Shown here one piece after another: positions 28,857-33,241 of a DNA stretch of 43,010 nt (position 1 is the first letter of the stretch; every line of letters starts with the position of its first letter). The position numbers were made by a program, and so were the translations under genes. The notes under the pieces are model-generated. The model saw nothing but the letters and a program-made list of their open reading frames with translations. It searched no databases and was not told where the DNA came from. Source of the DNA: Asaia bogorensis. GTDB lineage: Bacteria; Pseudomonadota; Alphaproteobacteria; Acetobacterales; Acetobacteraceae. The DNA lies in NCBI GenBank assembly GCA_945869965.1, contig CAMBRC010000033.1, positions 1-43,010 of the forward strand. Direction: 5' to 3'.

Positions 28857-30014
28857 TTAGGCCGGCGCGAAAATCCCCGCCGGCTTCGGCGTCACCAACA
28901 GATTCTCCGGCACCGGCGCCTGCGGCTCGCCCCCGCCGCGAAACGCGGGATCGTGCTGCAGCACCGGCATCACCCGGTCAGCGAACAGGCGCATATTCAC
29001 CTCCGCATCCTCCGCCGGCATCCCCCCGAACGAGAACTCGGCGGTCAGGTGATCCAGCCCGGTCAGCCGCGTCAGCTCGGCAATCTGCTCCAGGCAATCT
29101 TCCGCCGTGCCGGACACCTGGATGCTGACATAGAACTCCGTTGCCTTTGCCCGATGGCTGTCTTCCTTCAGCTTCGCATAGGTCTTACCGACCGCCGCAT
29201 AGCTCTCATAGCCCTTCACCCCGGCCAGGTGCCCGTCAGAGAACTTGTAGTGGGCATCGATCGAATCCCATTTCTTGCTCAGGAATTCGGCCGCCCGGTC
29301 GCGCGCCTCGGACCGCGTCGGCGCAATTGAGATGTTGGTCGAAACCACCGGCGGCCGCGGCGCATGCCCCATCTCCACCGCCAGCGCCCGGTGGCGATGA
29401 ATATCAGCCGCCGCCTTGCTCCACTCGTTCTGCATGATCACCAGCATCCCGAACCCCAGCCGTGCCATCACCTCCGCCGATTCCGGGCTGACCGACGAGG
29501 CAAAGAACCGCCGCTCGGGATGCGAGATCGGCCGCGGCCGGATCGACATGCGCGGAATGTCGAAGAATTCGCCCTTGTACTCGAACTCCTCCTGCGCCAG
29601 CGCCAGCGTCACGATCTTCGCCGCCTCGACAAAACGCGCCCGCGCCTCGTCCATCGGCACCCGGAACCCGGCATACTCAACGCTCGCCGCCCCGCGCCCG
29701 AACCCGAACAGGCACCGCCCGCCGCACAGAATGTCGAGCAGCGCGATCTGCTCCGCCACCCGCACCGGATCATGCCACGGCAGCACGATCACCGACGTCC
29801 CCAGCTGAATCCGCTTCGTCCGCCCGGCAAAATAGCTCAGCAGCTGCACCGGATCCGGCGACATCGCGTAGCCGGTGAAATGGTGCTCCAGCGCGAACAG
29901 CGAATCGAACCCCAACGGTTCCGCCAGGTCGCCCAGCCGCAAATGATCCGCCAGCACCGAGGCATCGCTGCGGCCCGGCTTGGTGAGCATGTTCATCGAC
30001 ATTCCGACCTTCAT
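28857..30014 (-). CDS. LLM-class flavin-dependent oxidoreductase (luciferase-like)
   Basis: 385 residues from the ATG at 30014, which has a strong TAGGAGGA upstream; the longer open frame is rejected for this reason. Bacterial luciferase-like TIM barrel: SLFALEHHFTGYAMSPDP near residues 39-56, LGTSVIVLPWHDPVRVAEQI, GGRCLFGFGRGA, RFVEAAKIVTLA and a C-terminal SFGGMPAEDAEVNMRLF helix. Such enzymes use FMNH2 (or F420) from a separate reductase to oxygenate or desulfonate a substrate. None of these features names the substrate. It lies between the GFA gene (22-base gap) and the archaemetzincin-like gene, in the operon that begins with the LysE exporter. Confidence 0.92.
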   Translation of the reverse strand: MKVGMSMNMLTKPGRSDASVLADHLRLGDLAEPLGFDSLFALEHHFTGYAMSPDPVQLLSYFAGRTKRIQLGTSVIVLPWHDPVRVAEQIALLDILCGGRCLFGFGRGAASVEYAGFRVPMDEARARFVEAAKIVTLALAQEEFEYKGEFFDIPRMSIRPRPISHPERRFFASSVSPESAEVMARLGFGMLVIMQNEWSKAAADIHRHRALAVEMGHAPRPPVVSTNISIAPTRSEARDRAAEFLSKKWDSIDAHYKFSDGHLAGVKGYESYAAVGKTYAKLKEDSHRAKATEFYVSIQVSGTAEDCLEQIAELTRLTGLDHLTAEFSFGGMPAEDAEVNMRLFADRVMPVLQHDPAFRGGGEPQAPVPENLLVTPKPAGIFAPA

Positions 30015-30036
30015 GGCCGTGTTCCTCCTATTGCAG

Positions 30037-30438
30037 TCACCCCGCCGTGGGAAATTCCACATACTGCGGCAGGTCGTCGGTGATGGTAAACCACGGCGCC
30101 TTGGACGCCACGAAGATATGCGCCCGCGGCCGAATCCCGGGATAGCCCCGCAGCGTCCCCAACGTCACATGCGCAAAGGCGCCATCCCGCACCACCGAAA
30201 ACAACAACGACCCACAACGCCCACAGCCGGTGTTGTTGTTCCCCGCCGTGCCCATCACCAGCAAAGCATCGCCCCCTTGCGTCACCGCAAGACACTCGCG
30301 CGCAACACCGGCAAACGGCTTGAACGCCGCCCCGGTCACCCGCCGGCACTGCGAACAATGGCAGTTCAACGCATAGGCAAAGCCGCCCTCCACCGCATAC
30401 CGGACAGCGCCGCAATAGCACCGCCCGATATGCCTCAC
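30037..30438 (-). CDS. GFA family protein (glutathione-dependent formaldehyde-activating type)
   Basis: 133 residues of the GFA/CENP-V fold. Zinc ligands: GRCYCGAVRY (Cys7, Cys9), NCHCSQCRR (about 25-33) and TGCGRCGSLLF (about 90-100). The family is named for an enzyme proposed to join formaldehyde and glutathione, a role not confirmed for most members. The ATG overlaps the stop of the upstream thioredoxin-fold gene by 4 bases (ATGA), so the two are translationally coupled. A small-molecule thiol or aldehyde role would fit that neighbour and the flavin oxidoreductase downstream (inference). Confidence 0.9.
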   Translation of the reverse strand: MRHIGRCYCGAVRYAVEGGFAYALNCHCSQCRRVTGAAFKPFAGVARECLAVTQGGDALLVMGTAGNNNTGCGRCGSLLFSVVRDGAFAHVTLGTLRGYPGIRPRAHIFVASKAPWFTITDDLPQYVEFPTAG

Positions 30439-31493
30439 AGCTCCGGCTGCTTGTAGTACGGCTTATCCCCCAGCGCGTTCACCCGCTCCCAGAACCCTGG
30501 CCCGCCAGCAAACCCCGACGGCTCCAGCACCTGCGCGTCGCGAAAAATGCACCAGGACTCCGGATGCAACCGGCTCGCCTCGGCGAAACACTCCGCCGCC
30601 TCGCCCTCCTGCCCCAGCCGCCGCAAATGCAACCCCAGCCGGAACAGCGCATCCGCCTGTGCCATATCACCGGTGATCACCGGCAGCCGCGCCCGCGCCG
30701 CGTCCGCCGGCAGCGCATGCTTGCCCGTCCGCACCCAGTCCCGCACCGCCTGGAAATACGCCGTGCGCGCCGCCAGCCGCGCCGCCACATCCTCCGGCGC
30801 CATCGTCCGCGTGGCCAAATCCATCTTGCGGAAATGATCCGTCGACCCCGCCGTCTCCGGCGGCCGCACGATCACACCCTGCTCATCGATCCAAACACAT
30901 TGCGGCACATTGACCATGCCATACAGCGCGGAAACCCGATGATCCCCGTCGATCAGACAGGGATACCCCGGCCGCGCCTGCTCGATCCACGGCCGCGCCT
31001 GCTCGGCCCCCCGCCCCTCTTCGGCAACAGCAATAACGGTGAAAGGCGCGTCGAAAAGGCAATCCTGCAAATCCTGCCACACGGACAGGTCAAGCCGGCA
31101 GCCTCACCAGGACGCCCAGGTCGTCAAGAACACCTTCTGCCCGCGATAATCCGACAGCCGATGCACCTTCCCGGCCAAATCTGGCAGCGCAAAATCTGGC
31201 GCCACCAGCCCCGCCAGCGCCGATTGCCGCGCATCCGGCCCGGTCCCCAGCACCCAGGTCGCACCAGCCCGGTCACTGGCCACCGGATTGCCCATGTGAC
31301 GCCAGAAAGCCGCAACGTCGATCCGCTCCCCCTGCCGCATCTCAGCGGTCAGCGGCACACAGAGTTCCGCGCGACACATCCCCTCGGGCTTCAGCGCCCA
31401 GCCGGTCACCCGCTCGGTATCGGCCGACGAGAGCACAAGCCCCGCGCCAGAAGGCACGTCATGCGTGCCAGTATCGCTCAAGACGGTCGTCAT
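30435..31493 (-). CDS. Probable selenoprotein: TlpA/redoxin-fold protein with in-frame TGA at the active site
   Basis: Read through one TGA (31104-31106), the frame gives 352 residues from the ATG at 31493 (GAGGGG upstream). The TGA is codon 130 in TTWASW-(TGA)-GCRLDLSVW, where TlpA/ResA-type domains have their first redox Cys; relatives I remember read TWASWCGCR. After the TGA the protein runs on without a break as a normal thioredoxin fold: FTVIAVAEE, PCLIDGDHRVSALYGMVNVP (cis-Pro), QCVWIDEQG, then a TPR-like C-terminal helix pair (FRLGLHLRRLGQEGEAAECF). A hairpin like a bacterial SECIS starts 14 bases after the TGA. Residue 130 is therefore probably selenocysteine, with Cys132 as resolving partner. 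Otherwise it is a nonsense mutation. No Sec machinery lies in the window. The gene is coupled to GFA downstream and follows a LysE gene. Confidence 0.8.
31073..31089 (-). promoter_or_regulatory. Candidate bacterial SECIS element
   Basis: In the mRNA, CCUG pairs with CAGG and CC with GG, with a single bulged U (31085) on the 5' side two pairs below a four-base loop GUGU (31082-31079). The first loop G is 22 bases after the UGA. A stem with a bulged U and a loop holding G-U near that distance is the SelB-binding layout known from E. coli fdhF. The hairpin lies inside the coding sequence, as bacterial SECIS elements do. The stem is short (6 pairs), so chance is not excluded. Confidence 0.6.
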
Positions 31494-31537
31494 CGGCTCT
31501 GCCCCTCGGTTGCAGCGCCATTCTGCCACCGGCCGCC

Positions 31538-32134
31538 TCAGCCTTCCAGCACCATCGGCAACATCGACACCACCAACACGATCGCCATGGCGATATTGAA
31601 CACCCGCATCCGCCGCCCCGGGCCCAACAACCGCGCAGCACCCTCGCCCAGCAGCGCCCACGGAATGCACGACGGTGGCGTGACCAGGAAAAACACCGCC
31701 CCGATCACCAACAATTGCGGCAGCGCGGCCTCATCCGGCCGCACCCAGGCCGCCGCGATCGACAGCGCCAACAGCCAGGCTTTCGGGTTCACCCACTGGA
31801 ACAGCACCGCCTTGACGAACCCGAACCGCATCCCGCCGCCCGCGGCCGCATCAACCGGCCCGGTAGCGATCTTGAACGCCAGCCACACCAGCCAAGCCAT
31901 CGCACCCCAGCGCATCGCCGCCGCCAACAACGGCTGGGCCGCCAGCACCCCGGCCAGCCCCGCCCCCACCAGCACGATCATCAGCGAAAACCCGGCGCCG
32001 TTGCCCAGTATGTGCGGCCAGGTCGCGCGCCAGCCATTCGCCGCCGCATTCGCAGTGACCAGCGCGTTGTTCGGCCCCGGCGTGACCGAGGCGGCAAACG
32101 CAAAGGCGATCAGCGGCAACAGGGAAAATTCCAT
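31538..32134 (-). CDS. LysE/RhtB family amino-acid exporter
   Basis: 198 residues, six predicted membrane segments. The N-terminal family motif is FAFAASVTPGPNNALV (about residues 11-26), followed by NGAGFSLMIVLVGAGL, WLVWLAFKI, GFVKAVLFQWVNPKAWLLAL and a last segment VFNIAMAIVLVVSMLPMVLE. Members export amino acids or homoserine lactone and are placed in the inner membrane. First gene of the minus-strand group LysE, redoxin-fold selenoprotein, GFA, LLM oxidoreductase, archaemetzincin-like; 44 bases separate it from the next gene. No strong ribosome binding site is visible before the ATG. Confidence 0.93.
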   Translation of the reverse strand: MEFSLLPLIAFAFAASVTPGPNNALVTANAAANGWRATWPHILGNGAGFSLMIVLVGAGLAGVLAAQPLLAAAMRWGAMAWLVWLAFKIATGPVDAAAGGGMRFGFVKAVLFQWVNPKAWLLALSIAAAWVRPDEAALPQLLVIGAVFFLVTPPSCIPWALLGEGAARLLGPGRRMRVFNIAMAIVLVVSMLPMVLEG

Positions 32135-32225
32135 GCAGATAGGTCAGCATTATTGACCTGTGACGGTCCAGAGAGCTGACCGCATGGCAGCGTCCCTGCC
32201 TCGACGCAGTCCTCAACCCCAACCG

Positions 32226-32615
32226 TCAGTCCGCACCCTGTTCCACCCGGCGTTCAGACCGCCCGCCCTGCGGCCCAACGCGCCCCACCGGCCCCTGAGC
32301 AGCCGCCGGCCGGCCAGACGGCTGCTGGCCAAAAAACGCCGGGCGCGGATCGCGGCTGGGTGCCGCGCCGCGGTTGTGGTCACCGCCGCGCCCCTGATCA
32401 CCACCACGGAATCGTCCGCCATCATCGCCGCGATAGCCATAATTCCGCTGCGGAGCATACCCCCCGCCCCAGTACGGCTGCGGTGTCGGCCGGTAGCCAT
32501 AGCTGCCGCCATGCCCCCGCCCACCGCCATAATCCGAATACCCATCCAGGTCGGCACAGCCCGACAGCGCCCCCAGGGCGACGGTCAGCGCGGCGATGGC
32601 GGCAATGCGTCTCAT
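32226..32615 (-). CDS. Gly/Arg-rich lipoprotein, unknown function
   Basis: 129 residues. Lipoprotein signal MRRIAAIAALTVALGALSGC with lipobox LSGC (Cys20). The mature part is low-complexity, rich in Gly, Tyr and Arg (YGGGRGHGGSYGY, GGRFRGGDQGRGG), then a Pro/Gln/Arg tail. No domain is recognised. The + strand frame across it is also open, but only this reading has a signal sequence, so I prefer it. The gaps on either side (32135-32225 and 32616-32713) show nothing else. Confidence 0.65.
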   Translation of the reverse strand: MRRIAAIAALTVALGALSGCADLDGYSDYGGGRGHGGSYGYRPTPQPYWGGGYAPQRNYGYRGDDGGRFRGGDQGRGGDHNRGAAPSRDPRPAFFGQQPSGRPAAAQGPVGRVGPQGGRSERRVEQGAD

Positions 32616-32713
32616 GGTGCTCTCCGGTCATGCCAGACACCTGGCAGGCATTGAAAATCACATATGGGTACGGCGGCCGTGCGCGCGCAGTGTGTCCGCT
32701 TCGTGGCAGCCCA

Positions 32714-33241
32714 TCACCCTAGCGTGAGCCCCGCCAGCAACCCCGGCGCCAGGATCCCGGTCGCCCAAACCAGCGCCGAGCCGATATTGGCCAGCTGAAA
32801 CGGCACCTGCGGCATCGCGCAACTCCCCGCCGCCAACGGCACCGCCGCCCGCAACGGCCCGAAGAACCGCCCGAAAAACACCCCGGCAATCCCCCACTTG
32901 GCAAAAAACCGCTGCCCCCGCGGCAACAGATCCGGCGTGCGCGTCAGCGGCCAGATATGCGCGAGCCGTTCCTTGAAATGAAACCCCACCCAGTACGACA
33001 CCGCATCGCCCAGCGTCGCCCCCGCAACCGCGGCAAACCAGCACGGCCAGAACGCCACCCCGCTGGCCCCCAGCAACCCCGACAACCCAAACAGAATCGC
33101 CGTTGCCGGCAGCAAAAGCGAGATCACCGCCAGCGACTCTCCAAACGCCAGCACAAACACCACCGGCACCGCCCATGCCTGGTTGGCCCGAACAAACTCC
33201 AACGTATCGTGAACCACCGCCTCGATGACCAACGCTCCCAT
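32714..33241 (-). CDS. DedA family membrane protein
   Basis: 175 residues from the ATG at 33241; a TTG at 33256 is in frame but less likely. DedA/SNARE-associated features: FVLAFGESLAVISLLLPATA (the family's E...P re-entrant region), ATLGDAVSYWVGFHF (GD...Y/F-x-x-G) and FFGRFFGPLRAAVPLAAG (the F/G-R-F motif). DedA proteins are inner-membrane transporters or flippases linked to undecaprenyl-phosphate or phospholipid recycling and to pH homeostasis. Somewhat shorter than the usual 200-220 residues, mainly at the C-terminus. The gene stands alone and is divergent from a membrane protein gene with a double hairpin repeat between them. Confidence 0.88.
   Translation of the reverse strand: MGALVIEAVVHDTLEFVRANQAWAVPVVFVLAFGESLAVISLLLPATAILFGLSGLLGASGVAFWPCWFAAVAGATLGDAVSYWVGFHFKERLAHIWPLTRTPDLLPRGQRFFAKWGIAGVFFGRFFGPLRAAVPLAAGSCAMPQVPFQLANIGSALVWATGILAPGLLAGLTLG

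What the first reader, a model, noticed from the sequence alone, without database searches (positions are those of the whole stretch)
30435..31493. Probable new selenoprotein: in-frame TGA replaces the redox Cys of a TlpA-like domain
Two adjacent open frames in the same reading frame are separated by a single TGA. Together they make one complete protein: N-terminal domain, thioredoxin fold with cis-Pro, TPR-like tail. The TGA falls exactly where the first active-site Cys is expected (TTWASW-TGA-GC), and homologues I recall have Cys there. A Cys-to-TGA exchange at a redox site, with intact coding sequence after it, is the classical selenocysteine signature. Standard annotation would report two fragments or a pseudogene. 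The alternative is a recent nonsense mutation or a base-calling error.
Basis: partly seen in the sequence, partly recalled or inferred. Interest (0 to 1): 0.88.

Follow-up and report, generated by a model that had tools for sequence, protein, structure and literature searches.

The report
Selenium-containing thioredoxin-like enzyme, family already catalogued
A gene that looks broken by a stop codon very probably encodes an intact redox enzyme in which the stop is read as selenocysteine; it belongs to a kind of predicted selenium protein that databases and papers already list.

Summary
In detail: minus strand, 31493 to 30435, TGA at codon 130 (31106-31104), open frame on both sides. The selenocysteine reading is strongly supported. 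The genome has tRNA-Sec, selA, selB and selD. The 25 distinct TGA-bearing coding sequences (this one included; the others 58-94% identical to it) all have the TGA at this codon. One diverged homologue has TGC there, in an incomplete genome (66%) where neither selA nor selB was found. Codons just downstream are unusually conserved at synonymous positions and can form a SECIS-like hairpin, but folding energies do not support it by themselves. It is not a new kind of selenoprotein. NCBIfam NF041054 describes this family, though the protein scores 289.6 against a cut-off of 300, and UGC-containing Prx/TlpA-like selenoproteins have been in print since 2008. Likely function: a cytoplasmic thiol-disulfide or peroxide oxidoreductase using Sec130 and Cys132. 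Two further invariant cysteines, C40 and C45, lie in an unnamed N-terminal domain. The substrate is unknown.

The parts
30435..31493 (-). Selenoprotein coding sequence, 352 residues with TGA130 read as Sec; terminal TGA at 30437-30435
   Evidence: NF041054 289.6 bits; 25 of 25 distinct TGA-bearing sequences share the codon
31104..31106 (-). In-frame TGA, codon 130 (Sec130 of the W-U-G-C motif)
31073..31089 (-). Candidate SECIS apical hairpin: 6-bp stem CCUGUC/GGCAGG, loop CGUGU starting 20 nt after UGA
   Evidence: fits loop, stem and spacing rules of the published bSECIS model; stem alone -6.6 kcal/mol, 45-nt fold -12.4, not better than shuffles
31098..31100 (-). Cys132 codon, partner of Sec130 (U-G-C)
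   Evidence: Cys in 43 of 43 aligned family rows
31224..31493 (-). N-terminal domain (about residues 1-90) with invariant C40 and C45; no Pfam match
   Evidence: Block pLDDT 89-95; no Pfam family at E<=5; C40 and C45 in 43 of 43 rows
30864..31208 (-). TlpA/ResA-like thioredoxin-fold domain (about residues 96-210), conserved Pro197
   Evidence: PF00578 residues 96-209; PDB matches 3kcm, 3gl3, 1st9, 1jfu; Pro197 in 43 of 43 rows; that it is cis is family knowledge
30438..30782 (-). Helical, TPR-like C-terminal region (about residues 238-352)
   Evidence: TPR_2 at residues 280-312, below cut-off; helices in the model
30037..30438 (-). Downstream neighbour, GFA-family gene whose GTG start overlaps the selenoprotein stop; no functional link claimed
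   Evidence: PF04828 3.7e-21; found in 8 of the 36 loci compared, all close relatives or this genome itself

Best explanation
The gene encodes a selenoprotein of the WAxxUGC (NF041054) kind. SelB with tRNA-Sec decodes UGA130 as selenocysteine, guided by a hairpin just downstream of the codon. The product is a soluble thioredoxin-fold oxidoreductase in which Sec130 attacks a disulfide (or peroxide) substrate and Cys132 resolves it through a U-G-C selenenylsulfide. Shown here: conservation of the TGA, the machinery genes in this genome, purifying selection on both sides, one Cys form, invariant C132, C40 and C45. Inferred: actual Sec insertion, SECIS function, the catalytic cycle, location, and any role of C40/C45.
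For: tRNA-Sec 75 bits against a cut-off of 47, found again by ARAGORN with anticodon TCA; selB 355.8, selA 557.8 and selD 295.4 bits, all over cut-off. Of 299 genomes of the family, 20 had a match: 19 (this genome included) with exactly one TGA, one with none. All 19 have selA, against 85 of 299 overall; hypergeometric 8.5e-12, ignoring relatedness. Of 385 genomes of the class, 22 hold 25 places of 200 bits or more; all 25 contain a TGA (24 one TGA only, one a TGA and a TAG); in the 17 further stretches of class genomes that I read, the TGA lies in the U-G-C motif in 17. TGA at the same codon in 25 of 25 distinct coding sequences. The Cys form L040 (36% identical) has TGC there, in G145, where neither selA nor selB was found. 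The 8-codon window from residue 134 has the highest synonymous conservation of 346 windows, and windows of 10 and 12 codons peak at residue 135; Asp135 is always GAC and Val138 always GTG in 25 of 25. One compensatory pair change, G-C to C-G, in the stem.
Against: SECIS evidence is moderate. The region folds no better than shuffles at four lengths (z -1.40 to 0.27). The published rules are met in the MFE fold by 14 of 25 sequences, 9 of them this gene and close relatives, against 688 of 5793 control codons. A scan that required the stem alone to reach -7.5 kcal/mol passed one distinct sequence only (L021, same as L049) and not the window's. The outermost pair fails in 10 of 16 distinct rows, 32 of 500 shuffles reach the covariation score, and sliding the partners by +3 also gives one both-side change. 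Part of the stem is fixed by the protein motif, and by eye the Cys form keeps much of it (letters). selB was not found at E<=1e-60 in 2 of 21 TGA-bearing genomes searched, G212 and G165, although both have selA. G145 is 66% complete, so its missing selA and selB are weak evidence. The Rfam tRNA-Sec model also gives matches at E<=0.001 in all 14 control genomes (over cut-off in 5), so the cut-off and ARAGORN carry that point. No protein or read data.
Confidence: 0.95

Rival explanations
1. Recent nonsense mutation or sequencing error in an ordinary Cys-type TlpA gene.
For: A single TGA in a draft assembly of 209 contigs; no reads available.
Against: 24 other distinct coding sequences carry TGA at the same codon and no other in-frame stop; low dN/dS downstream.
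Confidence: 0.01
2. The UGA is a true stop: two separate proteins, or a regulated truncation with re-initiation at the downstream GTG (31082).
For: Table 11 gives two ORFs; a short product under selenium shortage is likely in any selenoprotein gene (general knowledge).
Against: The break lies inside the thioredoxin fold between Trp129 and Gly131-Cys132; in the 25 distinct TGA-bearing sequences the codon is never TAA or TAG, though this set was chosen as those with TGA, and the one other near-full-length relative fetched, L040, has TGC and is continuous; selA is present in all 19 TGA genomes.
Confidence: 0.03
3. UGA is decoded here as another amino acid, such as Trp or Cys, by suppression or a changed code.
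For: Not excluded by protein data.
Against: The genome has tRNA-Sec and SelA/B/D, those long genes are open under the standard code, and this gene itself ends with TGA.
Confidence: 0.01

Closest known systems
NCBIfam NF041054, ResA-like WAxxUGC motif-containing protein (WAxxUGC_long)
   Same: Same length and layout (residues 21-347 match 8-349 of 354), same motif; the only family matched at 1e-30, and by all 22 members scanned.
   Different: Scores 289.6 against a cut-off of 300. The two best scorers of the class search (494 and 486 bits, motif WAPYUGC, about 37% identical to the window protein) sit on another branch, so this is a subfamily at the edge of the model.
'Prx-like (UGC-containing)', pfam00578, of the 2008 GOS survey (PMC2398784, passages); 'UGC-containing Prx-like protein' in PMC9312934 (passages); 'UGC-containing TlpA disulfide reductase family protein' in PMC13188914 (table passages)
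   Same: Same fold family (PF00578 in two of them, cd02966 in the third) and same U-G-C motif; predicted selenoprotein without known function. The 2008 table gives 46 selenoprotein sequences in 15 samples and 855 Cys homologues.
   Different: Their sequences could not be fetched, so identity of the family is inferred from domain and motif, not from alignment; whether they share the N- and C-terminal domains is unknown. The review also cites PMC5029168, whose main text holds no mention of UGC or TlpA.
ResA / TlpA / DsbE thiol-disulfide oxidoreductases
   Same: Thioredoxin-fold domain, WASW/WATW active-site stretch and conserved Pro.
   Different: Those aligned have C-x-x-C; here U-G-C, one residue shorter (two alignments printed). 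Extra N- and C-terminal domains; no hydrophobic N-terminal stretch.

Membership tests
NF041054 WAxxUGC_long | Score over the curated cut-off of 300 bits | tested here: not met
   289.6 bits (282.9 in the genome search); of the genomes drawn only 1 of 299 and 6 of 385 pass
NF041054 WAxxUGC_long | Full-length match to the model | tested here: met
   Residues 21-347 match positions 8-349 of 354, E 3.8e-86
NF041054 WAxxUGC_long | WAxxUGC motif with in-frame TGA | tested here: met
   WASW-TGA-GGC-TGC
Bacterial selenoproteins | In-frame UGA conserved across species at a Cys position | tested here: met
   25 of 25 distinct TGA-bearing sequences at one codon; Cys in L040
Bacterial selenoproteins | selA, selB, selD and tRNA-Sec in the genome | tested here: met
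Bacterial selenoproteins | bSECIS hairpin (loop 3-9 nt, stem 4-16 bp, G in first two loop positions, 16-37 nt from UGA, MFE <= -7.5) | tested here: inconclusive
   Window: loop CGUGU, 6 bp, 20 nt, -12.4 for the 45-nt fold and -6.6 for the stem alone; 14 of 25 family members meet the rules in the MFE fold against 688 of 5793 control codons; rules as quoted
Bacterial selenoproteins | Selenocysteine present in the protein | not testable with these tools
   Needs mass spectrometry or 75Se labelling
Published UGC-containing Prx/TlpA-like selenoproteins | PF00578-type domain with U-G-C at the active site | tested here: met
   definition from passages
Published UGC-containing Prx/TlpA-like selenoproteins | Homology to their reference sequences over the full length | not tested
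   I did not obtain MDE0950781.1 or MBL6689828.1, the accessions printed
TlpA/ResA thiol-disulfide oxidoreductases | Thioredoxin fold | tested here: met
   PF00578; profile to ResA/TlpA chains; Foldseek best E 6.3e-07, model weak around the active site
TlpA/ResA thiol-disulfide oxidoreductases | C-x-x-C active site | tested here: not met
   U-G-C in place of C-x-x-C

The most novel reading that the evidence does not exclude
A self-contained selenium redox relay: the N-terminal domain's invariant C40-x4-C45 pair exchanges electrons with the Sec130-Gly-Cys132 site of the same chain, so the protein carries its own reductant or substrate module, and the C-terminal helical region docks a partner. 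The short U-G-C site would tune it to isomerisation or rapid peroxide/disulfide turnover rather than classical TlpA chemistry.
Probability: 0.25. Interest if true: 0.55.

Novelty: new member of a known kind. Interest (0 to 1): 0.33.

Why it matters
It corrects a gene that standard calling would split in two, and it shows that a branch of a catalogued selenoprotein family lies around and mostly just under the cut-off of the NCBI model, so such genes may be annotated as fragments. The four invariant thiol/selenol positions give a concrete, testable mechanism for a selenoprotein family without known function. It does not add a new kind of selenoprotein.

Tried and rejected
The + strand translation of the given range was meaningless. 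Rfam over 29000-33000 gave one chance-level miRNA match. Shuffle-based folding did not support the hairpin, and a strict scan, with thresholds of my own reading, passed one distinct family member only; I then ran a second test on the MFE fold. I keep the SECIS claim on codon conservation, spacing and the published rules, marked as moderate. Gene context was tried as a clue to function and dropped: the LysE-type neighbour was found in 16 and the GFA neighbour in 8 of 36 loci, all close relatives or this genome itself, and in the three other loci examined (L050, L051, L052) the neighbours scanned that matched Pfam were CoxE-like, TPP-enzyme, MFS, peptidase M19 and molybdopterin-binding proteins. 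Plasmids held no relative at E<=1e-20. FdhA was checked as another selenoprotein of this genome: the full match has no in-frame stop. The pattern TGGTGAGGNTG is too common in the genome to be useful (38 matches, control 9). Literature: 'WAxxUGC' and 'NF041054' occur in no paper held; two searches found nothing; one search found no mention; the papers listed were not used. Rows dropped: eight exact duplicates, L040 (Cys), L054 (47-residue match at a contig edge) and L056 (140-residue distant TlpA) are outside the 25; 19 of the 25 were kept for the synonymous test; alignment A2 held 21 of the 25 plus L040; the structure alignment A3 held 14 rows. No second structure job was run.

Full report
What is there. 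The range 30435-31493 holds one coding sequence on the minus strand: ATG at 31493, an in-frame TGA at codon 130 (31106-31104), terminal TGA at 30437-30435, 352 residues. The + strand gives no sensible protein. Under the standard code it splits into a piece ending at 31104 and a GTG-started piece from 31082. The middle is a TlpA/ResA-like thioredoxin-fold domain (PF00578, residues 96-209; PDB relatives 3kcm, ResA, TlpA, DsbE). The tail is TPR-like but below Pfam's cut-off. The first 90 residues match no Pfam family but form a confidently predicted domain (block pLDDT 89-95).

Is the TGA selenocysteine? The genome (4.7 Mb in 209 contigs) has a tRNA-Sec (75 bits; again by ARAGORN with anticodon TCA), selB (355.8 bits), selA (557.8) and selD (295.4), all over their cut-offs. 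The control for the tRNA-Sec model gives matches in all 14 control genomes at E<=0.001 and is over cut-off in 5, so only the cut-off and ARAGORN count there. The family model NF041054 matched 20 of 299 genomes of the family: 19 (this one included) with exactly one TGA, one with none. selA was found in 85 of 299, including all 19 TGA carriers and not G145, the genome with the Cys form; hypergeometric 8.5e-12, which ignores relatedness. In one search selB was found in 19 of 22 genomes searched (21 TGA carriers and G145): it was missing in G145 (66% complete) and, against expectation, in two TGA carriers, G212 and G165. In the class, 40 of 385 genomes matched at 1e-15. The 25 places of 200 bits or more, in 22 genomes, all contain TGA (24 one TGA only, one TGA and TAG). 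The 26 weaker places (58-72 bits) are partial matches, 24 of them without stops. I read 17 further stretches from these class genomes; in 17 the TGA lies in the U-G-C motif. L062 has a second TGA at the edge of its match, upstream of a likely ATG. Some of the 25 strong places were not read, those for which no locus was fetched. In the phylum 3 of 398 matched: this genome, one other TGA carrier, and one weak match without a stop.

Conservation. together gave 33 TGA-bearing rows, 25 distinct, including this gene; the others are 58-94% identical to it, and in each the only in-frame TGA is at the same codon. L040, 36% identical, has TGC: W-C-G-C. dN/dS against six relatives is 0.079-0.225 downstream of the TGA and 0.105-0.343 upstream. 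This rules out a recent nonsense mutation or base-calling error. In 43 aligned family rows (42 TGA-bearing and L040) C40, C45, residue 130, G131, C132 and Pro197 are invariant, counting Sec as Cys.

SECIS. Downstream of the UGA an invariant loop CGUGU closes a five- to six-pair stem, 20 nt from the codon. This fits the loop, stem, spacing and G-position rules quoted in the 2026 review (section 5 read whole). The stem shows one compensatory G-C to C-G change, and C-G/U-G changes. Among 19 thinned sequences, the 8-codon window from residue 134 has the highest synonymous conservation of 346 windows; windows of 10 and 12 codons peak at residue 135, and a second, lower peak lies near residue 300. 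Among positions with an invariant degenerate amino acid, only Asp135, Val138 and Phe151 use a single codon in 25 of 25, besides the TGA itself. Against: energies are not better than shuffles; the stem alone is -6.6 kcal/mol and a strict scan passed one distinct sequence, not this one; 14 of 25 meet the rules in the MFE fold, 9 of these being this gene and close relatives (controls 688 of 5793); the covariation score is reached by 32 of 500 shuffles, and sliding the partners by +3 also gives one both-side change. So the hairpin is likely but not proven.

What it does. Best reading: UGA130 is decoded as Sec by SelB; Sec130 is the attacking residue and Cys132 the resolving one. The U-G-C spacing is one residue shorter than the C-x-x-C of the relatives aligned. 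From memory, C-G-C thioredoxin variants favour disulfide isomerisation; I did not verify this here. There is no hydrophobic stretch in the first 45 residues (best 15-residue Kyte-Doolittle mean 0.49), so a cytoplasmic location is likely (inference). The invariant C40/C45 pair may be a second redox centre; the AlphaFold model (14-row alignment, mean pLDDT 73.9) is below 50 at residues 127-138 and cannot place the pair against Sec130. Neighbours do not help: the LysE-type and GFA-family genes are local to close relatives.

What is known. NCBIfam NF041054 'ResA-like WAxxUGC motif-containing protein' matches all 22 members scanned; this protein scores 289.6 against 300, and few relatives pass (1 of 299; 6 of 385). 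The best scorers (494 and 486 bits) carry WAPYUGC and group with L040 and L075 apart from the other 39 rows, in a midpoint-rooted tree in which L040 has a long branch. In print: 'Prx-like (UGC-containing)', 46 selenoprotein sequences in 15 samples, 855 Cys homologues, more abundant in non-marine samples, in the 2008 ocean survey (PMC2398784, passages); 'UGC-containing Prx-like protein' (PMC9312934, passages); 'UGC-containing TlpA disulfide reductase family protein' (PMC13188914, passages and section 5). That these are the same family is inferred from the domain and motif. The finding is therefore a sound selenoprotein call on a known kind; its modest interest lies in the branch around the cut-off and the untested arrangement of four redox residues.

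Noticed in passing
window 30037-30438 (-): GFA-family gene (PF04828) whose GTG start overlaps the selenoprotein's stop, suggesting translational coupling in this genome; found in 8 of 36 loci compared, all close relatives or this genome itself.
   Followed up: partly
L061/L074 (G770) and L062/L075 (G797): Some alphaproteobacterial genomes carry two TGA-containing family members of different branches (motifs WAPYUGC with WSSWUGC or YASWUGC).
   Followed up: partly
L077 (G971:C22): A relative with an additional in-frame TAG in the N-terminal part; a decaying copy or an assembly error.
   Followed up: no
L057 (G000:C19:35692-37719): The genome's full-length formate dehydrogenase alpha match has no in-frame stop, so FdhA, which the 2026 review calls the most widespread bacterial selenoprotein, does not appear to sustain the Sec machinery here.
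   Followed up: no
L054 (Conexibacter MAG contig edge): A 47-residue match to the N-terminal domain only, at a contig end, in an actinobacterial genome; hints that this domain or family extends beyond Proteobacteria.
   Followed up: no
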